A stretch of DNA of 64,000 nucleotides from Seonamhaeicola sp. S2-3 (GTDB lineage: Bacteria; Bacteroidota; Bacteroidia; Flavobacteriales; Flavobacteriaceae): positions 2,305,001 through 2,369,000 of the forward strand of contig NZ_CP019389.1 of assembly GCF_001971785.1 (NCBI RefSeq), read 5' to 3'. Under the pieces are notes generated by a model, which saw only the letters and a list, made by a program, of their open reading frames with translations, was not told the DNA's origin and searched no databases. A program made the translations under genes and the position numbers. This document shows positions 4,581 to 63,052 of this stretch, in pieces (within the stretch, counting starts at the first letter, position 1; the number at the start of each line of letters is the position of its first letter).

Positions 4581-4625
4581 CATAACAGTACAGGACAGGT
4601 CTCAGCAATTCCTGTTTTATCTTTA
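4581..4625 (+). promoter_or_regulatory. CAGGATA-class operator-promoter for the 4648 operon
   Basis: The proximal heptamer CAGGACA (4591-4597) is preceded 10 bp upstream by CATAACA (4581-4587). The -7 element TATCTTTA (4618-4625) starts 21 bp after the heptamer ends, and the ATG lies about 23 bp further on. This is the same geometry as eight other sites in the window. Confidence 0.65.
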
Positions 4626-4647
4626 TCCTGCAAACGGAATATTAACC

Positions 4648-5378
4648 ATGGTCAAGAATTTAAATAGTTTAGTTGTAGTAGTTACATGTTTTATTTTTTC
4701 GTGTTGTAACACACTAAACGCATCGTATTCCAAAGGTATCTATAAGGAAAATTCTGCAAATAATTGCAAAAAAGAAACTGTTTATATTGAAAAGAATGGT
4801 ATAGTTAGAGTAGATCTTAAAAATTCAGGCGCTTCAAATAATGAGTGGTCTTCGCAAAATATTTTAGATGGGTATACAGGTTCCGATTATTTAATTTGGA
4901 GAGGAGCAGACAATTTTAATACCCCAGGAAATGGGCGTTTGGTTTATACAATAAAAATAAAACACTCAGGAACATATCAATTTGTTTGGAAATCTAGAAT
5001 TGGAGAAGGTGATAGTAATACAGAACATAACGATTCATGGCTTAGAATTAGTGCAGACTCCTTTTATGGCGAAAAGTCAAGTACCGGTCAACGTGTTTAT
5101 CCTAAAGGTTCTGGAAAAACCCGAACCCCGAAGGTGCCAGTAAAAACGGATGGTTGAAAATATATATGAATAAATTAGGAGAATGGACATGGAAATCTCA
5201 CACTAATGATAAAGATCCTTATAACATTTTTGTAAACTTTGAAAAACCTGGTATTTATGATGTTGAAATTTCAGGTAGGTCAAAATCACATGCTATAGAT
5301 CAGTTTGTTTTGTTTAGAACAGATAAAACATTAACACAAGCACAAAATGCAAAATTAAGTAAGATAACTTGTAAGTGA
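4648..5378 (+). pseudogene. Frameshifted secreted carbohydrate-binding-like protein
   Basis: Two overlapping frames (4648-5157 and 5124-5378) together encode one protein of about 240 residues. The upstream frame has a lipoprotein/secretion signal (F-I-F-S-C-C-N) and then D-Y-L-I-W-R-G and Y-Q-F-V-W-K-S-R-I-G-E-G-D-S-N-T-E-H-N-D-S-W-L-R. After ...K-G-S-G-K-T at 5119-5121 it drifts into a short nonsense tail. The other frame reads N-P-E-G-A-S-K-N-G-W-L-K-I-Y-M, a natural continuation, and ends with H-A-I-D-Q-F-V-L-F. The pattern is explained by loss of one base within 5119-5123, in or next to a C run. The protein looks like a jelly-roll binding domain, but I do not recognise a named family. It is the first gene of the operon, directly behind a CAGGATA-type promoter. 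It is either a recent frameshift or a sequencing error. Confidence 0.7.
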
Positions 5379-5391
5379 AGTTTAATAGATA

Positions 5392-6363
5392 ATGAATTCA
5401 AATAGCGTTAATTGGGGAATTATTGGTTGTGGTGATGTTGCCGAAGTAAAAAGTGGACCAGCTTTTCAAAAAGCAAAAAGGTCTGCTTTGTTGTTTGTAA
5501 TGCGTAGAAATGAAGAAAAATTAAAAGATTTTGCTAAAAGACATCATGTACCTAATTTTACAACTAATGCCTCAGAATTGATTAACGATAAAAGCGTTAA
5601 TGCAATTTATATAGCAACACCGCCTTCTTCGCATTTACAATATGCCTTACAAGCTATTCAAGCAGGGAAAAATGTGTATTTAGAAAAACCTATGGTACTA
5701 AATACTAAAGAAGCTAATCAACTTTCAAAAGCTTTAAAAAATAGCACTTCTAAAGTTACAGTAGCTCATTATCGTAGGTGTTTACCATTGTTTGTTAAGG
5801 TTAAGCAGTTATTAGAATCTAATATATTAGGTAAGGTGTCTTCAGCCGAAATTAGCATTGCTCAATCAAAACGTACAAGCCTTATAGCTAAAACAGATGT
5901 GAATTGGAGAATTAATCCAAAAGTGTCTGGTGGAGGCTACTTTCATGATATAGCTCCACATCAATTAGATTTAATGTACTACTATTTTGGAGATATTGCT
6001 AAAATAAAAAGAGGTTTTATTAAAGCCAATGAGTTTACCAATGATGTTGTAAGAGGGGAGGTAATGTTTAAAAATAAAGTCCAATTTAAAGGAAGTTGGA
6101 ATTTTGATGCGGTAAAAGATAATGATAGCTGCATTATTAAGGGAGACAACGGTTCAATTATATTTTCATTTTACGGTAATAAAATAACATTAAATGTTAA
6201 TGAAAAATCAGAACAATATAGCTTTAAAAGCCCCATTCATGTACAACAGCCCATGATTGAGAAAACAGTAGGTTATTTTTTAGAAGAAAATCAAAACCCT
6301 TGCTCAGTTGAAGAAGCTACAGTAGTTACTCAAATTATGGATGAATTTTGCGGAATAGAATAG
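5392..6363 (+). CDS. Gfo/Idh/MocA family NAD(P)-dependent oxidoreductase (cytoplasmic)
   Basis: The 323-residue protein has an N-terminal Rossmann fold (W-G-I-I-G-C-G-D-V-A-E near residues 8-18). It carries the family signature E-K-P-M (Y-L-E-K-P-M-V-L-N) and a C-terminal alpha/beta domain with the H-D-I-A-P-H-Q-L-D segment, whose His/Asp are typical catalytic positions. There is no signal peptide, unlike the two paralogs at 24101-26641. Family members oxidise or reduce sugars, inositols or sugar acids; the substrate is not determinable here. It sits 13 bp after the frameshifted gene and 9 bp before the GH43 gene, so an operon is likely. A role in converting a released sugar or uronate is inference. 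Confidence 0.85.
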   Translation: MNSNSVNWGIIGCGDVAEVKSGPAFQKAKRSALLFVMRRNEEKLKDFAKRHHVPNFTTNASELINDKSVNAIYIATPPSSHLQYALQAIQAGKNVYLEKPMVLNTKEANQLSKALKNSTSKVTVAHYRRCLPLFVKVKQLLESNILGKVSSAEISIAQSKRTSLIAKTDVNWRINPKVSGGGYFHDIAPHQLDLMYYYFGDIAKIKRGFIKANEFTNDVVRGEVMFKNKVQFKGSWNFDAVKDNDSCIIKGDNGSIIFSFYGNKITLNVNEKSEQYSFKSPIHVQQPMIEKTVGYFLEENQNPCSVEEATVVTQIMDEFCGIE

Positions 6364-6372
6364 TTAAGGCAT

Positions 6373-7752: not shown

Positions 7753-10026
7753 ATGAAGAAACTATTTTATTTAATACTAGTAGCGCTAGGTATATTATAT
7801 AATGCCTGTGGAAATAAAAGTACAACATCAAAAGATTACAAAGACGCTTCTTTGTCAATAGACGAGCGTGTCGATGCTTTGTTACCTTTAATGTCTTTAG
7901 AAGAAAAGGTAGCGCAAATGCGAATTTTTCATGCCAATATAGGGGTTAAGCATGATAAGGACGGAAAATTACAACTTTCCGATAGGGTTATTAAAAAATT
8001 AAAATTAGGTATTGCTGGAATTAAAAACCCAGGCGAACATATTGATGCAGTAGCTGCAGCTAAACTTAATAATGAACTTCAAAAATATATTATAGAAAAC
8101 AATCGTTGGGGAATTCCAGCCTTGTTTGTAACAGAATCTTACAATGGTGTAGATGCAGAAGGGTGTACTAAGTTTGGTCGCCCTATGACATCTGCAGCAT
8201 CATTTAATCCAGACTTAGTGCGCAGGCAATGGGATGTAGTGGGTAAAGAAGCGCGTTTAAGAGGTATGCATATGTGCCACTCACCTGAAGCAGATATTGT
8301 TCGTGACCCACGTTTTGGTCGTATGAGTGAAGCTTTTGGAGAAGATACCTATTTAACAACACAAATGGTTAAAAACGCTATTATTGGAGTTCAAGGAAAT
8401 TACGAAGGATTAGGAAATGGTACGCATATTGGTGCAGTAGCCAAACATTTTGCGGGGTACGGACAAGTTCTAGGAGGTTCTAACTTTGCGGCTATAGAAA
8501 TTTCACCAAGAACTTTAATAGATGAAATTTATCCACCATTTGAAGCAGCTGTAAAAGAAGCAAAAACCTTAGGTATTATGGCATCACATGGCGATATTAA
8601 CGGTATTGCAAGCCATGGAAATCCAGAATTATTAACAGGGGTTTTACGAGATCAATGGGGGTTTAAAGGTTATGTAGTTTCAGATTCTAACGATATTGCA
8701 CGTTTACATTATTTTATGCATGTGGCCGAAACACCAGAAGATGCAGCACGCATGGGCTTAGAGGCAGGTATTGATATCGATTTATATGCCGAAGATTCTT
8801 ATGCTTATCTTCCAGAAATGGTGAAGAAAAACCCAGAGTTAGAAAAGTTAATTGATAGATCTGTACGTCGTGTATTAAGAACAAAATTTATTTTAGGCCT
8901 TTTTGATAACCCATATATCGATATTGAAGAAGTAAAGAAAGGTGTTAGAGCCCAATCGTCTTTAGAGCTTGCTAAAGAATCAGATTTAGAATCTATCATT
9001 TTATTGAAAAATGAGGATAAGACTTTACCGCTTTCAAAAGACAAAACTTTAAAAGTAGCATTGTTAGGCCCACTATTAAAGGAGAATACAAAAGAGATGT
9101 TTGAGTCTGTTGCTGGTTCAAATGTGAAATTCATTGCTCAAAAAGGGTTTCAATTAACAAACCAAAAAGGAGGTGCTCCAGAACTTTTAGAAAGAGATCC
9201 AAAAGCTATAGCAAGTTTAGTTAACAAAGCAAGGTCTGCAGATGTATCAATATTATTTTTAGGTGGTGATGAGTACACTTCAAAAGAAGCGTATTTTAGT
9301 AACAGTACTTTAGGAGACCGTGCTACCATCGATCCTGTTGGTCCACAAGACGAATTGGTAGAAAAAATTAAAGCCTTAGGAAAACCAGTAATTGTGGTTT
9401 TAAAACATAGAAGAACGTTGTCAATTAACGTGATTGCAGAACAAGCCGATGCTATTTTAGATACTTGGGATTTAAGTGAGTTTGGAGATGAATCTACTGC
9501 TAGGATAATTTTTGGAGAAGTCTCACCATCAGGAAAATCACCAGTAACAATTCCAAGGTCTATAGGGCAAATTCCATTTCACTACAGTATGAAGGAGATT
9601 AACTATAAAAAAGAATATTTGTTTTTAGGCAAAGGCCCACTTTACCCATTCGGTCATGGTTTAAGTTATGTTGATTTTGAATATTCTGATATATCTATTT
9701 CTAACAAAGAATTAACCCCAAATACAGAACTCCAAGTTAGCGTAAAAGTAACCAACAAGGGCAATATGAAAGCTAAAGAAGTGGTGCAAATGTATATAAA
9801 AGATGAAATAGGTTCAGTTACACGACCTGATAAAGAGTTAAAGGGTTTTGAGAAAATAGAATTAAATCCAGGAGAAACTAAAACAGTATCATTTAAAATA
9901 ACGCCTAAAATGCTAGAATTTACAGGACTTAAAATGGAGAAAGTCTTAGAAGCAGGAGACTACACAGTCATGGTAGGCACATCATCACAAGACTATTTAG
10001 AAACAAAATTTAAACTAAAAAAATAA
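7753..10026 (+). CDS. GH3 beta-glycosidase, lipoprotein
   Basis: The 757-residue length is normal for a three-domain GH3. The lipobox is I-L-Y-N-A-C. The TIM-barrel domain contains R-D-P-R-F-G-R-M-S-E-A-F-G-E-D, K-H-F-A-G-Y-G and the nucleophile motif G-Y-V-V-S-D-S-N-D (Asp311). The (alpha/beta)6 sandwich follows, with G-G-D-E-Y-T-S-K-E-A as the likely acid/base loop. The FN3-like C-terminal domain begins after the P-F-G-H-G-L-S-Y motif. It lies between the GH43 and GH105 genes with gaps of 24 and 6 bp. In ulvan-type loci GH3 enzymes act as exo-beta-xylosidase or beta-glucosidase; specificity cannot be read from the sequence. Confidence 0.92.
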   Translation: MKKLFYLILVALGILYNACGNKSTTSKDYKDASLSIDERVDALLPLMSLEEKVAQMRIFHANIGVKHDKDGKLQLSDRVIKKLKLGIAGIKNPGEHIDAVAAAKLNNELQKYIIENNRWGIPALFVTESYNGVDAEGCTKFGRPMTSAASFNPDLVRRQWDVVGKEARLRGMHMCHSPEADIVRDPRFGRMSEAFGEDTYLTTQMVKNAIIGVQGNYEGLGNGTHIGAVAKHFAGYGQVLGGSNFAAIEISPRTLIDEIYPPFEAAVKEAKTLGIMASHGDINGIASHGNPELLTGVLRDQWGFKGYVVSDSNDIARLHYFMHVAETPEDAARMGLEAGIDIDLYAEDSYAYLPEMVKKNPELEKLIDRSVRRVLRTKFILGLFDNPYIDIEEVKKGVRAQSSLELAKESDLESIILLKNEDKTLPLSKDKTLKVALLGPLLKENTKEMFESVAGSNVKFIAQKGFQLTNQKGGAPELLERDPKAIASLVNKARSADVSILFLGGDEYTSKEAYFSNSTLGDRATIDPVGPQDELVEKIKALGKPVIVVLKHRRTLSINVIAEQADAILDTWDLSEFGDESTARIIFGEVSPSGKSPVTIPRSIGQIPFHYSMKEINYKKEYLFLGKGPLYPFGHGLSYVDFEYSDISISNKELTPNTELQVSVKVTNKGNMKAKEVVQMYIKDEIGSVTRPDKELKGFEKIELNPGETKTVSFKITPKMLEFTGLKMEKVLEAGDYTVMVGTSSQDYLETKFKLKK

Positions 10027-16236: not shown

Positions 16237-17166
16237 TTATTTTTCAACTTTTTCATACTCAGTATTTGCCCATCTAATTTGAGCTCTACCACCTTTAACT
16301 CTATAGGCACCATATCTAATACCTGATTCTAGACCTCTATCTGGTTCAGGAATATTCCAGTTAAATGTTTCTCCTCCTATTATTGCATTGCAATAATGGA
16401 TTTTTTTTGTAGAATCGTTTGGGTCTTCTTTAAAACCTACCTCTAGTTCAAAGTCAACTATTTCATTTTTATTTACTTGTTTTAGGAAAACAACTTCTCT
16501 ACCGCTTCCTTCTCCACCACGTTCTAGGATACGCTCTGCATAGATATCGAAAGCTACTTGCTTATCAGCATTGATACCAGTCCCATATACAGGCTTAGCT
16601 AAATACAAACAAATAGCAGGGTCATTAGAGCCTCCGCCGCCAGTGTGTTTTCCTTTGGCTTGTGCAATGTAAGTACCATTCTGACTATCAGAACCAGCAT
16701 CACCTACTTCAAGAATTCTAAAGATTCCAGTAAATTTTGCATAACTTCCTACTACTGTACTGCTAGATCTGCTTAATGAGCGTTCTATTCGGGGTTGTAA
16801 AGTGTTTGGTGCATCTTGATTATTTGAACCATCTGTTATATTGTATATCCCCCATGTAATACCATCGATGGTACTTTCTTTGTAATTAGCATAACAACTC
16901 CTATCATCAATAGTTCCAACATTAACAGGGTTTGGCAAATCGTTCGATGTTCTGGTAGCATTTTCTCCCTCAGGGTTGCATGTTGTGTAAGGACCTGTGT
17001 CTTCATCTGGTGCTATCTCTACAGGTTCTGGTTCAGGTTCTGGGGTCTCATAAATTATTGTGTCTTCAGAATACCCAAGTCCATCTTCTGTACAAGAAAA
17101 AAAGGCTACAAAAGCCATTAATGTGGTAATTGATACTAGTTTGTAAATAAATGTTGATTTTTTCAT
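16237..17166 (-). CDS. Probable ulvan lyase, PL28-like, surface lipoprotein
   Basis: The protein is about 309 residues from the ATG at 17166. I prefer this start over 17178 because the predicted -7 element ends at 17189, which would leave almost no leader for the upstream ATG. The lipobox is V-A-F-F-S-C-T-E-D, followed by an acidic [10 protein letters not shown] linker. The remainder is one all-beta domain with [56 protein letters not shown] and [14 protein letters not shown]. Size and motifs match, from memory, the jelly-roll PL28 ulvan lyases of Flavobacteriia. It would cleave Rha3S-uronate bonds and leave unsaturated uronates for GH105. No C-terminal T9SS domain is present. The family call could not be verified by search. 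Confidence 0.68.
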
Positions 17167-17188
17167 GATATATGGCAATATTTAATCG

Positions 17189-17233
17189 TAAAATTATTTT
17201 ATGGATAAAATACTTTCATCCTGTACTGTCCTG
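17189..17233 (-). promoter_or_regulatory. CAGGATA-class operator-promoter for the PL28-like lyase
   Basis: On the minus strand CAGGACA (17233-17227) and CAGGATG (17223-17217) are direct repeats 10 bp apart. The -7 element TAATTTTA (17196-17189) starts 21 bp after the proximal repeat. This leaves about 20 nt to the ATG at 17166. Confidence 0.75.
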
Positions 17234-17315: not shown

Positions 17316-17361
17316 CATGATACAGCAGGATGCTTTCAAATTATAAAAGTAATTATTTTAA
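17316..17361 (+). promoter_or_regulatory. CAGGATA-class operator-promoter for the GH106 gene
   Basis: CATGATA (17316-17322) and CAGGATG (17326-17332) are spaced 10 bp apart. A -7-like TATTTTAA (17354-17361) begins 22 bp after the proximal heptamer. The ATG at 17384 follows by about 22 bp. This is the only site with 22 rather than 21 bp. Confidence 0.6.
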
Positions 17362-17383: not shown

Positions 17384-20300
17384 ATGGATAAGATTTTAAA
17401 CATTTTTCTAGTATTTCTAATTTTAAGTTGCCAGTCAAAACACAGAGAAAAATTAGTTAAAGAACCTGAAATAGCTTTCAATGAATTGTCAGAGAACTTT
17501 AAGTCACCCGCTAATAAATACCGTCCTGAAACTTGGTTTCATCTAAATGGAAACAACATTAGTAAAGAAGGTTTAACATTAGATTTAGAAGCTATAAAAG
17601 AAGCAGGGTTACAAGGCGTACACCTATTTAATAAAGCAGGAAGGCCTTATCCAAACGTAAAACCTATAGAGATTTTATCTCCCGAATGGGAAGATATGAT
17701 TAGGCATGCAGCCAATGAATGTAAACGGTTAGGTTTAAAATTTACCATGCAAAATTGTCCAGGTTGGTCTATGACTGGTGGTCCTTGGGTGCCCGTTGAA
17801 GAAGCACAACGCGAAGTGGTTGAAACGGTTTATTACGTTTCTGGTAAACAAATTTTTAATGATATACTTGAGATAGATTCATTGTATCATACACCAGATT
17901 ACAATTATCAAGACATTCAAGTATTAGCTTTTCCAACCCCAGAAGGGGATGATACGCCTCCTTTCAAACCTACTTTAATAGAAACTAATAACACAGCTGT
18001 ACCATGGAAGGACATTTTTAATCCAGATGCTAAAATAATTGTAACTCGAAAAACTACGCGTTTAGATCAACCCTTAAATACATACAGAAAACAAGGTATT
18101 TCAAAAGTAAATAATCAAGATTCTTGGGTTAAGACAACATTTGATAGTCCTATTACATTACGTACTATACAGCTTCCGCAATTAAGGCATATTATTATGG
18201 GTACCCAATATCCGCAAGTAGATGTAGCTATTAAAGTTGAAGCCCTTATTGATAATAAACTAACAGAAATAACAACAGTAAATATCCCCGATGCTAACTG
18301 GAACGATAGGCGAAAACATTTAACTTTAGCTATTCCAGAAACCACTTCAAACAAATTTGTGTTTACTTTTAAAGGCACACATACTATAGCACCAGAAGTT
18401 ATCCGGCTAAGTGCAAAACCCAAACTTCATAACCATGAAGCTAAGGCCGCAAAAGTACTGCGCCGTCTTGAAAAGGATGTGCAGTATGCGTACAATGAAA
18501 AAACCTTTATAAATCTCAATGATATAGTAAATTTAACGGATAAAATGAATTCGGAAGGTAAACTAAATTGGGAAGTTCCCGAAGGCCGTTGGACGGTGGT
18601 TCGGTTCGGGCATATCAATATGCGATTAACCAATAAACCTGCCGTTCCTGAAGCCACTGGTTGGGAATCAAGTAAACTTGATAAAGTTGCTATAGAAAAT
18701 CATTTACGAAAAGGGATGATAGGTAATTTAATTAAAGAAGGTGGCCCTATTGGAGATGGTAAATTGCAAGGGCTATTAATTGATAGTTGGGAAAGTCACG
18801 TGCCTACATGGACCATGCATTCTGAAGATATGTTCAAAGAATTTGAAAACCGTAGAGGCTATAGTATGAAAAAATACTTGCCAGCCACTATGGGCTATAT
18901 TATTGAAAGTCCAAAAGTAACTGCTAAATTTTTAAGAGATTTACGGCACACCATGGATGACCTATTTATAGATAATTTCTTTAAACATTTTGCAACCGTA
19001 GCTCACGATATGGGGGTTGAAGTTTATACCGAAGGCGCAGGAGGCGAAGTGTTGCCAATAGATCCTATGCGGTATTATGGCGTTAGCGACAACCCAATGA
19101 CCGAGTTTTGGTACCCAAGTGCACCATCAGCACAAAATGAATATGCTAAACCTATTTACAATGCAGCATCAGCAACACATTTATATAATAAACCAATACT
19201 TGCTGCAGAGGCTTGTACCCAAGTAGGAGTAAAATGGGACGAACATCCATTTTCTGTAAAATATTTAATAGACTATAATTTTGCAAAAGGAGTAAACCAT
19301 TTGGTGTTTCACACGTTTTCGCATACACCACAAACCAATGTGCAACCAGGGTCTAGTTTTGGAGGGAATATAGGGTTTCCCTTAGTACGAGAGCAAACTT
19401 GGTGGAAATACATGTCTAACTGGACCGATTATTTAACCAGAAATCAATATGTATTGCAACAAGGTGAGTATGTGGCCGATGTGCTTAGGTATTATGGCGA
19501 TCATTATGAGCGTCCGCCATTCGATTTAGATTATTTTCCTAAAGGCTACAGATTTGATTATTTAAATGCAGAAATTTTACATGATAAAGTAAGTGTAAAA
19601 AATGGAAGGATACATGTTAAGGGTGCTGGTGATTACCAAATTATTACATTAAGAGATTCTAGGCAAATGTTACTTTCTACCATAAAAAAGTTAAAAACTT
19701 TGGTAGAAGCAGGTGCCGTAATTTTGGGAGACAAACCTGTAGATTCACCTAGTTTGATGGATGATGAAAACGATTTAATAACACTTAGAGCTATTGCCGA
19801 TGAGTTATGGGATAATACGGAAAGCGGAGTAAAACAAGTAGGTAAAGGAAAAGTATATTGGGGTAAAACATTGGAAGAGGTATTTAAAGAAGAGCATATC
19901 GCTCCTGATGTTATTGTTCCAAAAGATTTAGACATCAATTGGATACATAGAGAAACTGCCGATGCGCATATTTATTTTGTAGCTTCAAAACACAAAAAAC
20001 CAATAGATGTTGCGGTAAGTTTTAGGGTGAATAACCTAAGTCCAGAAATTTGGGATGCGTTTACAGGAGAACAGAAGGACGCCATGGTTTGGAGTCGGGA
20101 AAATAATAGAACAAATGTAACTTTATCATTACCAGAAAGCGGTAGTGCAATTGTGGTGTTTTCAAAAGAAGATAAAACGGCTTTAGCTTCAAAAGTAACA
20201 CTAAATGAACAGGTTATTTTAAATTCAAAGACAGGTTGGTTTAAGATTCATGATGTTGCTGATTTTCCAAAATTATCAAGAAAGGGAAATGTGTTTGTAG

Positions 20301-20839
20301 CTTCCGTTTCGGGAGATTATGTCTTTCATCAAAATGGAAACAAAATAACTAAAACGATTTCTGTTGAAGACATAACACTTCAAAAGGATTGGAACTTACA
20401 GTTTGAAAAAGGCTGGGATACGCCTGAAGCGATTCAACTTCCAGAATTAAAATCTTTAACAAGTTTAGAGAATAAAGCTATTCAGCATTATTCAGGAACC
20501 ATGACGTATTCAAAATCATTTCAACTAGAAGAAATAGTTAAACATACAATTTTAGATTTAGGGGAGGTGGCTAACATTGCAGAAGTATGGTGTAATGGTA
20601 AAAAAATAGGCGTAAAATGGGCCCCACCTTTTGTGTTTGATATTACAAAAGCAATTCAAAAAGGCAAAAATACTTTAGAAATAAAGATAACCAATACGTG
20701 GCGTAACCAGCTTATTTTTGATAATTTAAGAGCAAAAGATAATAAAAAAACATGGACTACGAGCCCTCCTAAAAAGGATGAAACTGAATTAGAAGATTCT
20801 GGTTTAATTGGTTCCGTGGTTCTTAAACTTGTTCATTAG
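17384..20839 (+). CDS. GH106-family alpha-L-rhamnosidase, lipoprotein
   Basis: The 1151-residue protein is normal size for GH106. It has lipobox F-L-I-L-S-C and the N-terminal family start (R-P-E-T-W-F-H-L-N-G-N, then G-L-Q-G-V-H-L-F-N-K-A-G). The barrel follows (N-C-P-G-W-S-M-T-G-G-P-W; D-S-W-E-S-H-V-P-T-W-T; Y-T-E-G-A-G-G-E). H-T-F-S-H-T-P-Q-T is near residue 645. The C-terminal beta-sandwich resembles a GH2 sugar-binding domain (L-D-L-G-E-V-A-N-I-A-E-V-W-C-N-G-K). GH106 enzymes remove alpha-L-rhamnose with a calcium ion. It is divergent from the lyase gene and has its own CAGGATA-type promoter. A second GH106-like gene starts at 63085. Confidence 0.85.
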   Translation: MDKILNIFLVFLILSCQSKHREKLVKEPEIAFNELSENFKSPANKYRPETWFHLNGNNISKEGLTLDLEAIKEAGLQGVHLFNKAGRPYPNVKPIEILSPEWEDMIRHAANECKRLGLKFTMQNCPGWSMTGGPWVPVEEAQREVVETVYYVSGKQIFNDILEIDSLYHTPDYNYQDIQVLAFPTPEGDDTPPFKPTLIETNNTAVPWKDIFNPDAKIIVTRKTTRLDQPLNTYRKQGISKVNNQDSWVKTTFDSPITLRTIQLPQLRHIIMGTQYPQVDVAIKVEALIDNKLTEITTVNIPDANWNDRRKHLTLAIPETTSNKFVFTFKGTHTIAPEVIRLSAKPKLHNHEAKAAKVLRRLEKDVQYAYNEKTFINLNDIVNLTDKMNSEGKLNWEVPEGRWTVVRFGHINMRLTNKPAVPEATGWESSKLDKVAIENHLRKGMIGNLIKEGGPIGDGKLQGLLIDSWESHVPTWTMHSEDMFKEFENRRGYSMKKYLPATMGYIIESPKVTAKFLRDLRHTMDDLFIDNFFKHFATVAHDMGVEVYTEGAGGEVLPIDPMRYYGVSDNPMTEFWYPSAPSAQNEYAKPIYNAASATHLYNKPILAAEACTQVGVKWDEHPFSVKYLIDYNFAKGVNHLVFHTFSHTPQTNVQPGSSFGGNIGFPLVREQTWWKYMSNWTDYLTRNQYVLQQGEYVADVLRYYGDHYERPPFDLDYFPKGYRFDYLNAEILHDKVSVKNGRIHVKGAGDYQIITLRDSRQMLLSTIKKLKTLVEAGAVILGDKPVDSPSLMDDENDLITLRAIADELWDNTESGVKQVGKGKVYWGKTLEEVFKEEHIAPDVIVPKDLDINWIHRETADAHIYFVASKHKKPIDVAVSFRVNNLSPEIWDAFTGEQKDAMVWSRENNRTNVTLSLPESGSAIVVFSKEDKTALASKVTLNEQVILNSKTGWFKIHDVADFPKLSRKGNVFVASVSGDYVFHQNGNKITKTISVEDITLQKDWNLQFEKGWDTPEAIQLPELKSLTSLENKAIQHYSGTMTYSKSFQLEEIVKHTILDLGEVANIAEVWCNGKKIGVKWAPPFVFDITKAIQKGKNTLEIKITNTWRNQLIFDNLRAKDNKKTWTTSPPKKDETELEDSGLIGSVVLKLVH

Positions 20840-20919: not shown

Positions 20920-20964
20920 CAGGATAAATCAGGATAGTTATAATTCACACTTAGCTTACTTTTA
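20920..20964 (+). promoter_or_regulatory. CAGGATA-class operator-promoter for the 20991 operon
   Basis: Two perfect CAGGATA heptamers (20920-20926 and 20930-20936) lie exactly 10 bp apart. The -7 element TACTTTTA (20957-20964) starts 21 bp after the second. The ATG at 20991 follows by about 26 bp. This is the clearest copy of the motif in the window. Confidence 0.8.
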
Positions 20965-28074: not shown

Positions 28075-28119
28075 CAAAAATATTAAACATTATGAATGAA
28101 AGTAACCTGTAGTATCCTG
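28075..28119 (-). promoter_or_regulatory. CAGGATA-class operator-promoter for the DUF1080 operon
   Basis: On the minus strand CAGGATA (28119-28113) and CAGGTTA (28109-28103) are 10 bp apart. The -7 element TATTTTTG (28082-28075) starts 21 bp after the proximal repeat. It precedes the DUF1080 ATG at 28026 by about 50 bp. Confidence 0.78.
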
Positions 28120-28140: not shown

Positions 28141-29016
28141 TTATTTTTCCTTAAGACGGAATTGCTTAGGTGTTAAGTTTGTTTTTTTCTTAAATAATCT
28201 ATTGAAGTAGTGATGTGATTCAAAACCCAATTCGAAAGCAATTTCTTTTTGAGATTTATTAGAGTTTAATAGTAACTCTTTAGATTTTTCAATTTTTAAT
28301 AGTAAATGATATTGTAGAGGAGAAACTCCCGTTTGTTTCTTAAAATCTATTCGGAATTTAGAATAACTTACGCCCAAATCCGAAGCTATTTCAATAAGAT
28401 TAATAGAACTGTTTATGTTTTTATACATGATGCTTTTTGCACGAGATATCATAGAATTTAAATCGTCCAAGTTACTACCACCGCTTTTAATATTATGCAA
28501 TTCTGCCATCAACTGAATACAAACTCCAGAAGCCACATGTTGATAGCCATAAGTAGCTTCATCAAATAATTTGAATAGTGTGTTAAAATGATGTAATACT
28601 GCAGGTGTATTGCATTTAGAAACAATAGGTTCATCAGCATTAAAAAAACCATTGGATAAAAATTGATTGGCAATGGCACCAGAAAACCCAACCCAACGTT
28701 CTGTCCAACCTGTACTTTTTTGGGGTTTGTAGCGATGCCAAACACCCGGAAATAATAAAAAAATATCACCATCAGACACTTTTATTTTTCCAGTAGCGTG
28801 GCTTTCAAAAATCCCCGTTCCCTTAGTTATTAAAACAATGTGGAATTCATTTAAAACACGTCCTTTTTCCCAAGTAAAAATATACTGGTCAGGATGATCC
28901 ATGGATGGGTATTTGGCATATTTTTTTATAACATTTCGTCCTAAGTTATTTATGTAAAAACCCCATGATTTATCTTTTTCAGAGGTAATTAGGTATTTTC
29001 GGTATTTATTTTTCAT
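28141..29016 (-). CDS. AraC-family transcriptional regulator (cupin sensor)
   Basis: The 291-residue protein has an N-terminal cupin-type sensor domain (F-H-I-V-L-I-T-K-G-T-G; D-G-D-I-F-L-L-F-P-G-V-W-H-R-Y). The C-terminal ~100 residues carry two helix-turn-helix motifs typical of AraC (L-I-E-I-A-S-D-L-G-V-S-Y-S-K-F; K-E-I-A-F-E-L-G-F-E-S-H-H-Y-F-N-R-L-F-K). It has no signal or membrane segment, so it is a cytoplasmic sugar sensor. It sits between two CAGGATA-type promoters (28075-28119 and 29122-29166). AraC proteins contact adjacent DNA grooves with their two motifs, which fits direct repeats 10 bp apart. It is the best candidate in the window for the CAGGATA activator, as an inference. The ligand may be rhamnose or a derivative. 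Confidence 0.9.
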   Translation of the reverse strand: MKNKYRKYLITSEKDKSWGFYINNLGRNVIKKYAKYPSMDHPDQYIFTWEKGRVLNEFHIVLITKGTGIFESHATGKIKVSDGDIFLLFPGVWHRYKPQKSTGWTERWVGFSGAIANQFLSNGFFNADEPIVSKCNTPAVLHHFNTLFKLFDEATYGYQHVASGVCIQLMAELHNIKSGGSNLDDLNSMISRAKSIMYKNINSSINLIEIASDLGVSYSKFRIDFKKQTGVSPLQYHLLLKIEKSKELLLNSNKSQKEIAFELGFESHHYFNRLFKKKTNLTPKQFRLKEK

Positions 29017-29121: not shown

Positions 29122-29166
29122 CATGATATTACAGGATAATAAATTAAGACTCTATAAATATCTTTA
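29122..29166 (+). promoter_or_regulatory. CAGGATA-class operator-promoter for the GH78 operon
   Basis: CATGATA (29122-29128) and CAGGATA (29132-29138) are 10 bp apart. The -7 element TATCTTTA (29159-29166) starts 21 bp after the proximal heptamer. A leader of about 80 nt to the ATG at 29251 follows. Confidence 0.77.
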
Positions 29167-46331: not shown

Positions 46332-47471
46332 TTAAATATTCTGTTTTCTCCATTTAAGGGGGGGTGTGCCTTCAATAGAAGAAAACCACCTACTTACATG
46401 GCTTACATCTTCAAAACCAAGATGAAATGCAATTTCTTTAACAGATAACTTTTGATTGGTTAATAAGGTTTTAAACTTTTTTATTTTCTGAAATTGAATT
46501 TCTTCTAAAATAGTTCGATTTGTAGTTTTTTTAAATCTGGTGTATAAACTTCTTCTACTTATATTTGTTTCGGCTACAACATTTTCTACAGTTAAATTTC
46601 TATGGGTATTGGTTCTTATAAAGTTAAGAGCTTTAATAACCTCCTTGTCGTTACTGGCAATAGTATCCGTTGAGCCTCGCTCAATAACACTTAGTGGTTC
46701 TGTTGGGATTATATAGTTATCTACATTTAAGTGATTCATCATATTGTTTAAAACTTTGCAAGCGTTAAAGGCTGCAGCAGAATGATTTCTTGCAATACTT
46801 GATAATTGGGGGTGTACTACACTGCATAATAATTCGTCATTGTCTACTCCTAAAATGGCAACCTCATACGGTATTCTTAATTTAGCCATAGAACAGGCAT
46901 TTATTAATATAATACCTAAATCATCATTACAGCAAAATATACCAATAGGTTTGGGTAGTAATTGAAGCCAAGAAACAATGTGCTTTAAATTATGATTAAT
47001 ATCTTTCTTTTTTTTTGGAGTATAGTTGTAAACATTAATGTTTAGCTTTTGTGCATGTTTTTCAAAACTCTTAAGTCGCCCGTCCGACCATTTAACATTA
47101 TTTATACCAAAAAAAGCGGTGTTTTTAAACCCTTTAGATGAAAAGTATTCTAGTGCTATTTTTCCATCTGCATCATAATTCCCTTTAAGAAAAGGTGTAT
47201 TGTTTGTCTTATTTATAGAACTTGTTAATACCATAGGAATCCCTAATTCGGTAATTTTTTTTGCACCTTTTAGATTTTCAATAATACATCCATCTGGTTT
47301 TATTTCAGATATGAGTTTTATAAGATTATCGTTTTTTGATGTTTTTAAATAATAAGAAGGTTCAAATATAATTTCCCATTTAGAAAATTGATTGTTGTAA
47401 TTGTATATCCCTTTTAATATATCCCTTCCAAAGCCACGGCCAGATTCTAATTGAACAAATACTTTTTTCAT
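46332..47471 (-). CDS. XylR-like regulator (LacI-type sensor fused to AraC DNA-binding domain)
   Basis: I chose the ATG at 47471 (M-K-K-V-F-V-Q-L-E-S-G-R-G-F-G-R) because the upstream frame has no family-like residues. The protein is then about 379 residues. The N-terminal ~270 residues are a periplasmic-binding-protein-like sensor (C-C-N-D-D-L-G-I; I-L-G-V-D-N-D-E-L-L-C). The C-terminal ~100 residues are an AraC-type double helix-turn-helix (I-S-R-R-S-L-Y-T-R-F-K; K-E-I-A-F-H-L-G-F-E-D-V-S-H-V). It is divergent from uxaC. A TGCACAATATGG site lies 57 bp upstream of its start, and two related sites precede other uronate-side genes. A uronate or aldonate ligand is likely but inferred. Confidence 0.88.
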   Translation of the reverse strand: MKKVFVQLESGRGFGRDILKGIYNYNNQFSKWEIIFEPSYYLKTSKNDNLIKLISEIKPDGCIIENLKGAKKITELGIPMVLTSSINKTNNTPFLKGNYDADGKIALEYFSSKGFKNTAFFGINNVKWSDGRLKSFEKHAQKLNINVYNYTPKKKKDINHNLKHIVSWLQLLPKPIGIFCCNDDLGIILINACSMAKLRIPYEVAILGVDNDELLCSVVHPQLSSIARNHSAAAFNACKVLNNMMNHLNVDNYIIPTEPLSVIERGSTDTIASNDKEVIKALNFIRTNTHRNLTVENVVAETNISRRSLYTRFKKTTNRTILEEIQFQKIKKFKTLLTNQKLSVKEIAFHLGFEDVSHVSRWFSSIEGTPPLKWRKQNI

Positions 47472-47527
47472 TAAATAATCATAATTTGATGCTATATTTT
47501 GTAAATGTAGCAATAAAAGATGGTTTA

Positions 47528-47592
47528 TGCACAATATGGCGTTAAAATGTAATAAATAGGCTAAGCTAAAAAATCTCTATAATGTAATATTG
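47528..47592 (+). promoter_or_regulatory. TGCACAATATGG operator and uxaC promoter (divergent with regulator gene)
   Basis: TGCACAATATGG (47528-47539) is identical to the copy at 41812, and TAGGCTA follows at the same distance. A -7-like TAATATTG (47585-47592) starts 57 bp after the motif begins. The ATG of uxaC is at 47631. The site also lies just upstream of the regulator gene, so autoregulation is possible. Confidence 0.62.
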
Positions 47593-57519: not shown

Positions 57520-57564
57520 TCAAACACCACAGGATAATAAACATGTTTAAATCATTTATTTTTG
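57520..57564 (+). promoter_or_regulatory. CAGGATA-class operator-promoter for the second GH2-like gene
   Basis: CAGGATA (57530-57536) is preceded 10 bp upstream by a weak half-site TCAAACA (57520-57526). The -7 element TATTTTTG (57557-57564) starts 21 bp after CAGGATA. A leader of about 140 nt follows before the ATG at 57714, longer than at the other sites. Confidence 0.65.
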
Positions 57565-57713: not shown

Positions 57714-60560
57714 ATGCTTCAAAAGAAATATTTTATTACAACTTTATTAGTGTTAGTACTTTGCTTGCAATCGTGTTTTATGATGGCGCAAAGCAAGGTT
57801 TATCTATCTGGTCAGGGACCAAAAACAGCAATCGATTGGGAGTTTAAAATATCCGATGGTAGAAATAGTGGGTTTTGGACAACCATTCCTGTACCATCTA
57901 ATTGGGAGACTGAAGGTTTTGGTTATTATATGTATGGTATGGATAAAATGGAGAAACGCATCCCGCCAGTAGGGAACTACCGTTATAATTTTAAATATAA
58001 AAAACTAAATGCTAAGCGCTATTTTATCGTTTTTCAGGGCTCTATGACTGATACCAAAGTGCGCTTAAATGGTAAGGAGGTAGGCTTTCATCAAGGCGGG
58101 TTTACCCAGTTTAAATTTGAAGTGACTTCACACTTGAAAGATGGGGATAATATTCTGGAAGTTGAGGTTAATAGTTCATCTTCTAATGAATCTATTGTCG
58201 CAGCAGAACGTTACGCCGATTTTTGGATGTTTAGTGGCATTTTTCGTCCCGTTTTTATTAAAGAAGAACCGGTAGAGTTTATAGAACGCGTGGCTATTGA
58301 TGCTCAAATGACAGGTGCTTTTAAAATGGATGTTTATGCAAATGGCGTTGAAAAAGGACGTAAAATAACGGCTCAAATATATGATGCCAACCATAATAAA
58401 GTTGGTAAAGCAATTAAAGCCAATATTAAAGGAGACAGCATTCAAGTGCAAACGCAGTTAGACGATATTGCTCTTTGGTCACACGAGTTTCCAAACCTAT
58501 ACTCTGTAGTTATTCAATTGCTTGATAAAAAAAAGGTATTACACACGTATCAACAAAAGTTTGGTTTCAGAACATTTGAAGTACGTCCACATGATGGTTT
58601 TTATTTAAACGGAAAGCGCCTATTACTAAAGGCGGCCAATATGCATAGTTTTCGTCCTGAAACAGGAAGAACACTTTCAAAAGAAGATATGCTTGAAACC
58701 TTCAAGCTTATGCAGGATATGAATTTTAACACGGTACGACCATGTCATTATCCGCCAGATGCGTACTTCTTTGAGTTGTGTGATTCGCTAGGGATGTTAG
58801 CCATGGACGAATCTACCGGATGGGTGAAACCTCTAGATACGCCAGTAGGAACAAAAATAGTAAAAGAGATTATTGAGAGGGATGTAAATCATCCATCAAT
58901 TGTGTTATGGAGTAATGGTAACCATAATGCTCATAATCCTAATTTGAATGCAGTGTTCAAAAAATGGGATATTCAAAAAAGGGAAGTTTTAAAAAATTCA
59001 CCTAAAAAGGCAGGTCATATTAAAAATGCCTTTAACCCAGCAGAGAATAGCGTGAATACTACTTACTATCCTAGCTATAAAGATGTCAAAGAACGCTTAT
59101 TTGATAAGAATGACATTTACCTACCTAATGAAACACTCCACGCATTATACGATGGTGGCGGTGGGGCCAACCTGAAAACTTATTGGGATTTGTTTGAAAA
59201 ATCTAAAGTAGGTGGAGGTATTACAATTTGGGCGCTTTATGACGAAGGCTTGTTACGCACTGATAAGGGGTATACAGTGGATAATCAATATAGTAAAGCT
59301 TCCGATGGTATTGTTGGGCCACATGGCGAAAAAGATGGTAGTTTCTACGCTATTCGAGAAATTTGGTCTCCAGTTGTTATTGAAGATACTTTAGTAGATT
59401 CAAATTTTTCAGGAGCATTAAGGGTTCATAATAAGTTTTTATTTACCAATCTTAATCAATGCAAAATTGAATGGAAACTTATCAATTTTTCAAACCCAGA
59501 CGGCACTAGTAATGGTCACAGGACAGTAGCCTCAGGAACCGTAAATGCAAACATTAAAGCGGGAGAAAAAGGAAAGATTGCTCTAGATTTACCTGAAACT
59601 TATAAGGATACAGATGCGCTAGCTATTCAAGTTTACGATACCAAGGGTGTTTTGGTTTACGATAAACGTTTACCAATTAAGAGCTCAAAGCGCCCAATGT
59701 TTAGAGCAGCAGAACATGTTCCTTTTGTAAGGGCAGAAGAGGATGCTTATAGTTTTAAACGTCATGGACTTACTTTGAGTTTTGACCCTACCACGGGTGT
59801 ATTACTATCGGTAAAAGACAAAGGCAAAAAGACGAGCCTATCTAACTTTCCTTTCTTAACCTACGAATCGGTAAATAAAACACTTCAAAATGAGCTAAAA
59901 CAAACAACTACGATAAGTTGTTCAAAAGTAGGTGATACTTGGTTTATTGAAGCAAAAGGCACCAACGGTTTTGATTACATAAAATGGAACTTGAAACCCA
60001 ATGGTGAAATTTTATTGGACTACGCATATACTCTAGCAACGGGAAAATACAACTACGCAGGTATTGGAATTGAAGTAGATGCAGATGATGTACTACGTAA
60101 GCGTTGGTTGGGTGAGGGACCTGAGCGTATCTGGAAGAACCGTCTCGAAGGTGGTGTGTTGGATGTGTATTTTAACGAAAAACAAGTAAATATACCAGGA
60201 TTAGTTTACAATCCACCGGCTTTTGAAGGCTGTTTTGCACCATGGAACTGGGCTGTGTTTTATCTTAACGATTATGTAAATGTAGCTTTTAAAAATCAAA
60301 CAGAGGTCGTATTGGGTGTCCTGAATCCTGTAAACGGTAAAGGTCATAAATATGCCAATTGGAGCTACCCAAATAAAGAAGGTTTTTTCTTTTTTGACTA
60401 TATCTCTGCGGTTGGTTCAAAGTGGAAGAAAGCAACGGAATTTGGTCCTGATGCACAACCTAGCGTAATTGATGGGCAAGTAAAAGGTTCTGTGTCTATG
60501 TTTATTAATTGGAATAAACCCACAGTAAAAGCAAAAAGAGTAGATTTTGAGTTGGAATAA
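57714..60560 (+). CDS. GH2-like protein with His at the usual acid/base position, copy 2
   Basis: The 948-residue protein has a lipoprotein-like or SPI signal (L-C-L-Q-S-C-F-M-M-A-Q-S). It shares the full GH2 layout with the preceding gene. The motif is W-S-N-G-N-H (His404), again His instead of Glu. The nucleophile region L-P-N-E-T-L-H-A-L-Y-D-G-G-G is kept. The two genes are tandem paralogs, but each has its own control region; this one has a CAGGATA site. The FG-GAP gene follows 10 bp downstream and is probably cotranscribed. Whether it is an active hydrolase with an unusual acid or a non-catalytic protein is open. Confidence 0.86.
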   Translation: MLQKKYFITTLLVLVLCLQSCFMMAQSKVYLSGQGPKTAIDWEFKISDGRNSGFWTTIPVPSNWETEGFGYYMYGMDKMEKRIPPVGNYRYNFKYKKLNAKRYFIVFQGSMTDTKVRLNGKEVGFHQGGFTQFKFEVTSHLKDGDNILEVEVNSSSSNESIVAAERYADFWMFSGIFRPVFIKEEPVEFIERVAIDAQMTGAFKMDVYANGVEKGRKITAQIYDANHNKVGKAIKANIKGDSIQVQTQLDDIALWSHEFPNLYSVVIQLLDKKKVLHTYQQKFGFRTFEVRPHDGFYLNGKRLLLKAANMHSFRPETGRTLSKEDMLETFKLMQDMNFNTVRPCHYPPDAYFFELCDSLGMLAMDESTGWVKPLDTPVGTKIVKEIIERDVNHPSIVLWSNGNHNAHNPNLNAVFKKWDIQKREVLKNSPKKAGHIKNAFNPAENSVNTTYYPSYKDVKERLFDKNDIYLPNETLHALYDGGGGANLKTYWDLFEKSKVGGGITIWALYDEGLLRTDKGYTVDNQYSKASDGIVGPHGEKDGSFYAIREIWSPVVIEDTLVDSNFSGALRVHNKFLFTNLNQCKIEWKLINFSNPDGTSNGHRTVASGTVNANIKAGEKGKIALDLPETYKDTDALAIQVYDTKGVLVYDKRLPIKSSKRPMFRAAEHVPFVRAEEDAYSFKRHGLTLSFDPTTGVLLSVKDKGKKTSLSNFPFLTYESVNKTLQNELKQTTTISCSKVGDTWFIEAKGTNGFDYIKWNLKPNGEILLDYAYTLATGKYNYAGIGIEVDADDVLRKRWLGEGPERIWKNRLEGGVLDVYFNEKQVNIPGLVYNPPAFEGCFAPWNWAVFYLNDYVNVAFKNQTEVVLGVLNPVNGKGHKYANWSYPNKEGFFFFDYISAVGSKWKKATEFGPDAQPSVIDGQVKGSVSMFINWNKPTVKAKRVDFELE

Positions 60561-60570
60561 CTAAAATAGC

Positions 60571-61812: not shown

Positions 61813-61868
61813 AAAACAGCGTACTTAGGTGTTATGTTTTTTAGTTTTGCAAATAAAATTTTTTACAT

Positions 61869-61913
61869 CCCGATACTACAGGATAATATTTAACCCTACT
61901 TGATTTAGTTTTA
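61869..61913 (+). promoter_or_regulatory. CAGGATA-class operator-promoter for rhaT
   Basis: CCCGATA (61869-61875) and CAGGATA (61879-61885) are 10 bp apart. The -7 element TAGTTTTA (61906-61913) starts 21 bp after CAGGATA. The ATG at 61941 follows by about 27 bp. Its position before a rhamnose transporter hints that rhamnose or its derivative is the inducer. Confidence 0.75.
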
Positions 61914-61940
61914 TGCTTCATATAATTTAAAGTAAAAATC

Positions 61941-62993
61941 ATGCAAGCAATTTTAGGCGTATTATTTCATTCATTGGGCGGAGTCGCAGCAGGTAGTTTT
62001 TACATGCCATATAATAAAGTAAAAGGTTGGGCTTGGGAAACGTACTGGATGGTTGGAGGTTTAGTATCATGGCTAATCGTGCCGCCAATAGCTGCTTGGT
62101 TAACTGTACCTGGCTTTCTAGATATTATAGTTGCTAGTTCCAACACCATTCTAAGCTTTGTGTTTTTAATGGGCTTACTATGGGGGGTAGGTGGGTTAAC
62201 TTACGGTCTTGGTATTCGGTATTTAGGCATGTCTTTAGGTAATTCTGTAGTATTGGGGTTTTGCTCAGCATTCGGAGCTTTAGTACCTCCAATTTATTAC
62301 AATTTGAAACCAATGGAAGGCAAAGAAACGTTCTCTGATATGTTAGCTTCGTCCGGTGGACAATTGGTGCTTTTTGGTGTGTTGGTATGTTTATTAGGAA
62401 TTGCAATTTGTGGTAAGGCCGGTATGTTAAAAGAAAATGAACTTTCTGATGAGGAAAAAAAGAAAAGTGTTTCAGAATTTAATCTGGTAAAAGGACTAGT
62501 GGTTGCTATTTTATCTGGTATTTTAAGTTCATTTTTTAGTTTTGGAATTGAAGGCGGTAAACCATTAGCTGATGCTGCAGTGGCAGCTGGTTATGACCAT
62601 TTATATGCTAATAATGTAACCTTTGTGGTCATACTTTGGGGCGGTTTAGCAACTAATTTTGTTTGGACCACTTTTTTAAGCATAAAAAATAAATCCTATA
62701 ACGACCTTACCAATAAGACAACTCCCATTTCAAAAAATATCATGTTTTCGGCTTTAGCAGGTACAATATGGTTTTTACAGTTCTTTTTCTACGGTATGGG
62801 CGAAAGTAAATTAGGAAATGGAGCTAGTTCGTGGATTTTGCATATGTCTACCATTATTTTAACAGCTAATCTTTGGGGTATTTACCGTAAAGAATGGAAA
62901 GGTGTTGCCGCTAAAACTAAGTGGACCATAACTTCAGGTATTGTGGTTATTGTTTTATCTGTTGTTTTGGTAGGTATAGGGAATTCTATTTAG
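61941..62993 (+). CDS. rhaT: L-rhamnose-proton symporter
   Basis: The 350-residue protein has about ten membrane segments and RhaT family motifs: H-S-L-G-G-V-A-A-G-S-F-Y-M-P at the start, W-E-T-Y-W-M-V-G-G and W-G-V-G-G-L-T-Y-G-L-G-I-R-Y-L-G-M-S-L-G. Later segments are G-I-L-S-S-F-F-S-F-G-I-E and F-Y-G-M-G-E-S-K-L-G. It imports L-rhamnose across the inner membrane. It is a single gene with its own CAGGATA promoter. The rhamnose catabolic genes are not in this window. Confidence 0.95.
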   Translation: MQAILGVLFHSLGGVAAGSFYMPYNKVKGWAWETYWMVGGLVSWLIVPPIAAWLTVPGFLDIIVASSNTILSFVFLMGLLWGVGGLTYGLGIRYLGMSLGNSVVLGFCSAFGALVPPIYYNLKPMEGKETFSDMLASSGGQLVLFGVLVCLLGIAICGKAGMLKENELSDEEKKKSVSEFNLVKGLVVAILSGILSSFFSFGIEGGKPLADAAVAAGYDHLYANNVTFVVILWGGLATNFVWTTFLSIKNKSYNDLTNKTTPISKNIMFSALAGTIWFLQFFFYGMGESKLGNGASSWILHMSTIILTANLWGIYRKEWKGVAAKTKWTITSGIVVIVLSVVLVGIGNSI

Positions 62994-63007
62994 GTTAAAT
63001 AGATTTT

Positions 63008-63052
63008 TACGAAATTACAGGATACCTTCGTATTTTAAAAGTCTTACTTTGA
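63008..63052 (+). promoter_or_regulatory. CAGGATA-class operator-promoter for the 63085 gene
   Basis: CAGGATA (63018-63024) has only a weak upstream half-site (63008-63014). The -7 element TACTTTGA (63045-63052) starts 21 bp after it. The ATG at 63085 follows by about 32 bp. Confidence 0.7.

What the first reader, a model, noticed from the sequence alone, without database searches (positions are those of the whole stretch)
4581..63052. A CAGGATA direct-repeat operator at fixed distance from the -7 element defines a PUL-wide regulon
Nine promoter regions (4581, 17189 minus, 17316, 20920, 28075 minus, 29122, 57520, 61869, 63008) carry a CAGGATA-like heptamer. In most, a related heptamer lies exactly 10 bp upstream. 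In eight of nine the heptamer ends 21 bp before the first T of a TAnnTTTR -7 element (22 bp in the ninth). It occurs on both strands in the direction of transcription, ahead of lyase, GH106, GH78, DUF1080, GH2-like and rhaT genes. The site sits where the -33 element should be, which suggests a class II-type activator replacing -33 recognition. The AraC protein at 28141-29016 is the natural candidate, since its double helix-turn-helix fits half-sites one helical turn apart. I know of no published description of this motif, but could not check.
Basis: partly seen in the sequence, partly recalled or inferred. Interest (0 to 1): 0.88.

Follow-up and report, generated by a model that had tools for sequence, protein, structure and literature searches.

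The report
Rhamnose-linked switch for seaweed-digesting genes
A short DNA label (CAGGATA, written twice, ten bases apart) sits at one exact distance from the promoters of many seaweed-sugar digestion genes in marine bacteria, and it tracks a control protein encoded beside the rhamnose-eating genes rather than the protein first suspected.

Summary
All nine units have the form heptamer-N3-CAGGATA-N20-TAnnTTTR-like and are the nine best hits of their own matrix in the window. That matrix finds 13 more sites in 91 kb flanking the window. In a second set of sequences, an operator-only scan finds TAnnTTY at exactly the predicted offset in 80 of 134 sites and at 0 of 134 one base either side.

Across 299 Flavobacteriaceae genomes the motif follows not the AraC protein (28141-29016) but a GntR/LacI-type chimera encoded about 57 kb past the window, divergent from a rhamnose catabolic operon. 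Of 42 motif-bearing genomes 38 have that GntR ortholog and 12 have AraC; of 19 genomes with three or more sites, 19 have GntR and 9 have AraC. Two genomes with AraC but no close GntR have no hit.

Best reading: a rhamnose-responsive GntR-family regulator binds tandem half-sites in place of the -33 element, probably as activator. GntR-family operators are typically palindromes, so a 10-bp tandem operator at base-exact promoter distance is a new variant. Binding, ligand and sign are untested.

The parts
4581..4625 (+). Operator-promoter unit before ORF 4648-5157 (no Pfam match)
   Evidence: CATAACA-gta-CAGGACA-N20-TATCTTTA; matrix score 27.9
17189..17233 (-). Operator-promoter unit before the PL28 ulvan lyase gene (16237-17178, minus)
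   Evidence: CAGGACA-gta-CAGGATG-N20-TAATTTTA; score 32.2
17316..17360 (+). Operator-promoter unit before GH106 (17384-20839)
   Evidence: CATGATA-cag-CAGGATG-N20-TTATTTTA; score 27.9
20920..20964 (+). Operator-promoter unit before ORF 20991-22907 (638 aa, no Pfam match)
   Evidence: CAGGATA-aat-CAGGATA-N20-TACTTTTA; score 29.1
28075..28119 (-). Operator-promoter unit before the DUF1080/3-keto-disaccharide hydrolase gene (26644-28026, minus)
   Evidence: CAGGATA-cta-CAGGTTA-N20-TATTTTTG; score 32.1
29122..29166 (+). Operator-promoter unit before GH78 (29251-32523), divergent from the AraC gene
   Evidence: CATGATA-tta-CAGGATA-N20-TATCTTTA; score 31.8
57520..57564 (+). Operator-promoter unit before GH2-like gene (57714-60560); weakest of the nine
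   Evidence: TCAAACA-cca-CAGGATA-N20-TATTTTTG; score 24.4, left-out rank 45
61869..61913 (+). Operator-promoter unit before rhaT (61941-62993)
   Evidence: CCCGATA-cta-CAGGATA-N20-TAGTTTTA; score 32.0
63008..63052 (+). Operator-promoter unit before a GH106 gene that starts at 63085 and runs past the window
   Evidence: TACGAAA-tta-CAGGATA-N20-TACTTTGA; score 27.1
28141..29016 (-). The favoured binder, a GntR + Peripla_BP_3 gene, lies outside the window at window scale 120907-121956 (minus; genome 2425907-2426956)
   Evidence: Pfam HTH_18 + AraC_binding; co-occurrence tables; GntR domains

Best explanation
The 45-bp unit is an operator-promoter module of a rhamnose/ulvan regulon. Two CAGGATA half-sites one helical turn apart occupy the place of the -33 element, 20 bp before a Bacteroidota-type -7 element. 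The binder is most likely a GntR-family regulator of AraR-like build (GntR winged helix plus LacI-type sugar-binding domain) encoded divergently from a rhamnose catabolic operon about 57 kb past the window. Two winged helices, presumably of one dimer, bind head-to-tail on one face of the DNA and, with rhamnose or a derivative as signal, hold RNA polymerase at promoters that lack a -33 element. Shown by sequence: the motif, its 10-bp period, its base-exact spacing, its target genes, and its co-occurrence with the GntR gene. Inferred: binding by GntR, dimer, ligand, and activation rather than repression.
For: Motif and spacing. Co-occurrence in 299 genomes: motif in 38 of 60 with the GntR ortholog against 4 of 239 without (Fisher p 6e-28), three or more sites in 19 of 60 against 0 of 239. 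Position: a site of score 18 or more within 450 bp of the GntR gene in 46 of 71 loci at 52% identity or more, further than 1.5 kb away in 8 of 71, six permuted matrices 0 to 0.8%. Rhamnose genes in the same fragment as GntR in 48 of 71 loci. Own rhamnose operon has a site 71 bp before its first gene, which is divergent from GntR, and that gene passes the curated cut-off of rhamnulose-1-phosphate aldolase/dehydrogenase models. More distant GntR homologs of the family have period-10 repeats of other heptamers upstream: 6/7 repeats at period 10 in 17 of 26 genes, at other periods of 8-15 in 0 to 5, with different recognition-helix residues.
Against: No binding, expression or start-site data. 22 of 60 GntR-bearing genomes had no model hit at E<=0.01 and 25 of 71 GntR loci had no site of score 18 within 450 bp. 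The 58% paralog in the own genome (2688355) has no site beside it (L199). Genomes with both AraC and GntR average 5.75 sites against 1.35 with GntR alone. Pedobacter loci L038-L040 have a motif-like site beside a 42% AraC homolog; in the two of these genomes searched, the closest GntR homologs are 39-40%. Members of the GntR family usually bind palindromes (PMC4494728, passages). CTAGTAG-type sites of a paralog group show no single -7 offset.
Confidence: 0.75

Rival explanations
1. The AraC-family protein at 28141-29016 binds the two heptamers with its two helix-turn-helix motifs and activates.
For: It lies between two of the sites; all 12 surveyed genomes with an ortholog have the motif; 24 of 29 loci around orthologs have a site of score 18 or more against 4 of 51 around distant homologs.
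Against: All 12 also have GntR. 30 of 42 motif-bearing genomes, and 10 of 19 with three or more sites, lack AraC. Two genomes with AraC but without a close GntR have no hit. Its two recognition helices differ. Its own upstream region has a different conserved element and no CAGGATA unit in its direction.
Confidence: 0.05
2. GntR binds the operator but as a repressor that blocks the -33 region and is released by rhamnose.
For: AraR and many GntR-family members are repressors (PMC4494728, passages; partly recalled); the site overlaps the promoter.
Against: A repressor does not need a base-exact distance to -7: TAnnTTY at offset 37 in 80 of 134 sites and at 36 or 38 in 0 of 134. No other conserved column that could be a -33 element was seen.
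Confidence: 0.13
3. A different local regulator binds: the GntR paralog at window scale -13811 to -12810, or the LacI/AraC chimera at 46332-47534.
For: The -13811 paralog has CAGGATA sites 121 bp before its start and before the next gene.
Against: Orthologs of that paralog (E<=1e-55) are missing from 7 of 19 genomes with three or more sites and present in genomes with no site. Neither protein was the best own-region match of any ORF in the site clusters of five AraC-less genomes. The LacI/AraC chimera was not surveyed genome by genome.
Confidence: 0.03
4. An unidentified regulator elsewhere in the genome, inherited together with the GntR gene, binds the sites.
For: Co-occurrence is not proof of binding; not all regulators of the genome were surveyed.
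Against: The site is next to the GntR gene itself in 46 of 71 loci, and GntR subfamilies differ in heptamer.
Confidence: 0.04

Closest known systems
AraR subfamily of the GntR family (B. subtilis AraR)
   Same: GntR winged helix plus GalR/LacI-type C-terminal domain (description in PMC4494728, passages); a sugar regulon; the AraR DNA-binding domain is among the solved relatives (4egy).
   Different: Here a direct repeat of 10-bp period at a fixed promoter distance; AraR is recalled as a repressor on palindromes. Only 35-58% paralogs and their own subfamilies were compared here, not AraR itself beyond.
Bacteroides RhaR (AraC family)
   Same: Bacteroidota regulator of rhamnose genes.
   Different: AraC family, direct repeat of 21-bp period; in B. 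thetaiotaomicron a single target operon (PMC3870299 and PMC3878776, passages).
Bacteroides FucR (GntR family, BT1272)
   Same: GntR-family regulator of a deoxysugar pathway in Bacteroidota (table in PMC3878776).
   Different: One target operon; its motif is in a supplement I could not read, so the operators were not compared.
MocR and other GntR members with direct repeats (GabR, TauR, PdxR; NanR, FarR, NagQ)
   Same: GntR winged helices reading direct repeats; some MocR members activate divergent operons (PMC5320631, PMC4494728, passages).
   Different: MocR repeats are two or three turns apart and the effector domain is aminotransferase-like; no fixed distance to -7 was described in the passages seen.
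HTCS and SusR regulons of Bacteroides
   Same: Direct-repeat operators before polysaccharide utilization genes.
   Different: Repeat spacing about 21 bp (HTCS) or 67-77 bp (SusR), other protein families (PMC3878776, passages).

Membership tests
GntR family, AraR subfamily | N-terminal GntR winged helix | tested here: met
   PF00392, residues 17-80, 46.1 bits against cut-off 27
GntR family, AraR subfamily | C-terminal GalR/LacI-type domain | tested here: met
   PF13377 Peripla_BP_3, residues 216-336, 31.8 bits against cut-off 26.5
GntR family, AraR subfamily | Palindromic operator | tested here: not met
   If GntR is the binder: tandem CAGGATA, no palindrome, no conserved column further upstream. 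The subfamily is defined by protein domains, so this marks a variant
GntR family, AraR subfamily | Binds its operator and releases it with a sugar | not testable with these tools
   Needs EMSA and ligand assays
MocR subfamily | Aminotransferase-like C-terminal domain | tested here: not met
   Peripla_BP_3 instead; MocR models of NCBIfam match only the winged helix and stay far below cut-off
AraC-type rhamnose regulators (RhaS/RhaR, Bacteroides RhaR) | AraC-type regulator co-occurring with the operator | tested here: not met
   AraC ortholog in 12 of 42 motif-bearing genomes
AraC-type rhamnose regulators (RhaS/RhaR, Bacteroides RhaR) | Direct repeat of 21-bp period (Bacteroides form) | tested here: not met
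   Period 10: related heptamer at -10 in 41 and +10 in 32 of 251, no other offset above 2
Class II activation | Site overlapping the upstream promoter element at fixed distance | tested here: met
   41 of 70 and 80 of 134 at one offset; neighbours 0 and 3, 0 and 0
Class II activation | Contact with RNA polymerase and stimulation of transcription | not testable with these tools
   Needs in vitro transcription or reporter data

The most novel reading that the evidence does not exclude
GntR/LacI chimeras of the Flavobacteriaceae form a class of activators that replace -33 recognition through tandem half-sites one helical turn apart. Paralogs differ in heptamer (CAGGATA, CAGAACR, CTAGTAG, TGTGGTG) and in recognition helix while the tandem architecture stays, and the rhamnose member alone wires 22 sites over 144 kb of one genome. 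The CAGAACR form with the same 20-bp spacer also appears in two loci of other families of the class (L267, L269).
Probability: 0.4. Interest if true: 0.8.

Novelty: new variant of a known kind. Interest (0 to 1): 0.72.

Why it matters
Rhamnose is a main sugar of ulvan, and how marine Bacteroidota coordinate very large polysaccharide loci is little known. If right, one regulator beside the monosaccharide pathway controls a 144-kb stretch through a motif that can be read from sequence, which predicts its targets in other flavobacteria and, from the heptamer, which GntR paralog reads them. It also offers a GntR-family direct-repeat operator whose promoter distance is fixed to the base: a testable case of an activator replacing the -33 element of Bacteroidota promoters.

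Tried and rejected
AraC as binder: looked good in AraC-centred loci but rejected on co-occurrence.

First genome-wide pattern had one N too many (21) and gave two matches, neither in the window; it tested the wrong spacing and is not used.

A second AraC-type half-site 21 bp upstream: no conserved column before the distal heptamer.

The -13811 GntR paralog as binder: rejected.

Unguided repeat test upstream of the close GntR group (52% or more): no clear period-10 excess (14 at 6/7 against 10.7 shuffled; period 13 gave 33). The distal half there is degenerate (such as CGGTACA), so in that group only the matrix shows the site. Upstream of 25 GntR homologs of other families, period-10 repeats are at shuffled level (2 of 25 at 6/7); single matrix hits of 18 or more there are in L269, L277 and L278.

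Unguided -7 offsets for distant paralogs were blurred by overlapping repeat registers. By class: CAGAACR 6 of 27 listed sites have TAnnTTY at 20; CTAGTAG 22 sites, mixed offsets; TGTGGTG 5 sites, one at 20.

Literature: ten searches ran, one of them empty. I saw no flavobacterial GntR rhamnose/ulvan operator in their listings; the search for CAGGATA with Bacteroid held 78 papers, of which only ten were listed. Structure prediction and fold search were not used.
Full report
OBSERVATION. The window is positions 2305001-2369000 of a 3.75-Mb single-contig genome. Two same-genus genomes agree in contig length and coordinates with Seonamhaeicola records (G004 with L017, G005 with L018). The window holds an ulvan-type locus: PL28 lyase, GH78, GH106, GH2, GH3, GH43, GH88, a sulfatase, SusC/SusD, uronate isomerase, rhaT. 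All nine reported sites are there. Each is a 45-bp unit: heptamer, 3 bp, CAGGATA-like heptamer, 20 bp, 8-bp -7 element. They are the nine best hits of their own matrix in the window; left out one at a time, 8 of 9 rank 9th or better and 57520 ranks 45th.

INDEPENDENT TESTS OF THE MOTIF. The matrix of the nine sites was applied elsewhere. In 155 kb (window plus 91 kb of flanks) it finds 22 sites of score 18 or more: the nine and 13 new ones. 21 of the 22 lie within 250 bp upstream of a same-strand ORF start and outside ORFs; the exception (window scale -1189) is 253 bp away and falls in a 93-aa called ORF. In site clusters of five genomes without an AraC ortholog (chosen because they had several hits) it finds 46 sites in 253 kb, 44 so placed; column-permuted matrices give a mean of 0.2 and a maximum of 2 over all 408 kb. 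Around AraC orthologs (61% identity or more) 57 sites reach 18, in 24 of 29 loci; around distant AraC homologs 5 sites, in 4 of 51 loci.

SPACING. Searching with the operator alone, the first T of TAnnTTY falls at offset 37 from the distal heptamer in 41 of 70 sites near AraC orthologs, at 36 in 0 and at 38 in 3. In a second set (the five AraC-less clusters plus 74 GntR-gene loci, some of them from AraC-bearing genomes) it does so in 80 of 134, with 0 at 36 and 0 at 38; the next most frequent offset, 35, has 6. The strict pattern misses near-matches: T and A at 37 and 38 are 91% and 93% in that set. Around 251 CAGGATA/CAGGATG/CAGGACA heptamers a related heptamer sits at -10 in 41 and +10 in 32 cases; no other offset exceeds 2. 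No column upstream of the distal heptamer is conserved, so the operator is 17-18 bp with consensus about CAKGAYA-gta-CAGGATA-S.

WHO BINDS IT. The AraC ortholog (E<=1e-90) is in 12 of 299 Flavobacteriaceae genomes, the motif model (E<=0.01) in 42. All 12 have the motif, but so do 30 without AraC, several with 3 to 8 hits; the four clusters fetched most fully, from G293, G099, G296 and G074, contain homologs of the own ulvan/rhamnose locus. The own cluster ends at a rhamnose operon: a bifunctional rhamnulose-1-phosphate aldolase/dehydrogenase above curated cut-off, a rhamnose-isomerase-like and an FGGY kinase gene, both below the cut-offs of the specific models. A site lies 71 bp before it and, divergent, a 349-aa GntR + Peripla_BP_3 regulator. 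Counting genomes whose best match is E<=1e-110 (the next best genome is at 5e-83), orthologs are in 60 of 299. The motif is in 38 of 60 against 4 of 239 (Fisher p 6e-28); three or more sites in 19 of 60 against 0 of 239. The four exceptions have one hit each; about three chance hits are expected at E<=0.01 over 299 genomes, and E-values of this model are rough. AraC is in 9 of the 19 multi-site genomes. Mean hits per genome: 5.75 with both, 1.35 with GntR only, 0.02 without GntR; AraC-bearing genomes do have more sites, for whatever reason. Fisher values ignore phylogeny.

DISSOCIATION. Of 17 genomes reached through AraC loci, 11 have AraC at 61% identity or more. Nine of these also have GntR at 56% or more and all nine have hits at E<=0.05 (two of them no better than 0.027 and 0.033). 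Two (Labilibacter; a Bacteroidales MAG) have only 38 and 33% GntR homologs and no hit. Of six with 41-43% AraC homologs, one has a hit, at 0.017. Two genomes are few. Against this, the Pedobacter loci L038-L040 show a matrix site beside the AraC homolog although the closest GntR homologs in the two of these genomes searched are 39-40%. The GntR paralog at window scale -13811 is missing from 7 of 19 multi-site genomes. The LacI/AraC chimera at 46332-47534 was not surveyed.

POSITION NEXT TO GNTR. In 71 GntR loci at 52% identity or more, a site of score 18 or more lies within 450 bp of the gene in 46; further than 1.5 kb away in 8; six permuted matrices gave 0 to 0.8%. Three loci at 44-52% have none; of 26 below 44%, three have one. 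Rhamnose genes lie in the same fragment in 48 of 71.

FAMILY-WIDE FORM. In 400 bp upstream of 26 GntR homologs below 46% identity, an exact 7-bp repeat with three or more G/C at period 10 occurs in 8 genes, and at other periods of 8-15 in at most 1; at 6 of 7, in 17 genes against 0 to 5. Seven further Flavobacteriaceae homologs: 3 and 7 of 7 at period 10. Heptamers differ by subfamily: CAGAACR, CTAGTAG, TGTGGTG. Recognition helices differ with them (SRDTVEKAY; SRDTIVRAY or SRDTVVKAY; SRDTVL-type; SKETVKKAY), but this follows phylogeny and is not a formal test. CAGAACR sites have -7 at 20 bp in 6 of 27 listed; CTAGTAG sites have no single offset. In 25 homologs of other families the upstream repeats are at shuffled level.

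MECHANISM. The operator stands where the -33 element would be; its centre is 29 bp before the first T of the -7 element, near -41 if starts lie a few bases past that element (layout of Bacteroidota promoters recalled, not measured). Base-exact spacing across many genera is what an activator touching polymerase needs and a repressor does not. Two near-identical half-sites one turn apart fit two copies of one winged helix in tandem; the AraC protein has two different helices per monomer (SYSKFRIDFKK and SHHYFNRLFKK). Activation, dimer and ligand are inference.

LITERATURE. Bacteroides RhaR is AraC-type with a 21-bp-period repeat (PMC3870299, passages; PMC3878776, passages). GntR operators are typically palindromes with direct-repeat exceptions such as NanR, FarR and NagQ, and that survey held one Bacteroidetes regulator (PMC4494728, passages). 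MocR regulators use direct repeats two or three turns apart (PMC5320631, passages). A Zobellia GntR alginate repressor is known to me here only by its title in a reference list; the paper was not held. FucR's motif is in a supplement I did not read. I saw nothing describing this operator in the listings of the ten searches named under Tried and rejected, but most subscription papers are not in the library.

Noticed in passing
just before the AraC start in L010-L028 and L052 (locus 9771-10003): AraC orthologs share a strongly conserved stretch right before the start codon (around TTGACAATTTGATATATTAGTTGCACAAAATGATATG), unlike the CAGGATA unit; it may be AraC's own promoter or operator.
   Followed up: no
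window 29251-57499: About 28 kb with GH78, uronate-pathway genes and the SusC/SusD pair has no CAGGATA unit of its own, so part of it is probably under another regulator, perhaps the LacI/AraC chimera at 46332-47534.
   Followed up: no
L286-L289 upstream of GntR homologs of 32-35% identity: CAGAACGGAACAGAACGG-type runs where half-sites recur every 5 and 10 bp, i.e. overlapping repeats right before the GntR start.
   Followed up: partly
L153 (genome 2926932-2926976; window scale 621975): One remote matrix site (score 25.3) before a 642-aa protein in the own genome, outside the cluster.
   Followed up: partly
L038-L040 (about 9720-9841): Pedobacter loci carry CAGGACA-gca-CAGGTTG units divergent from a 42% AraC homolog, without a close GntR ortholog in the two genomes searched.
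   Followed up: partly
window 33-2600: The listed ORF is cut by the window start: the gene begins at window scale -936 (1178 aa) behind two CAGGATA units at -1189 and -1060, and joins a sulfatase-type N-terminal part to GH78.
   Followed up: partly
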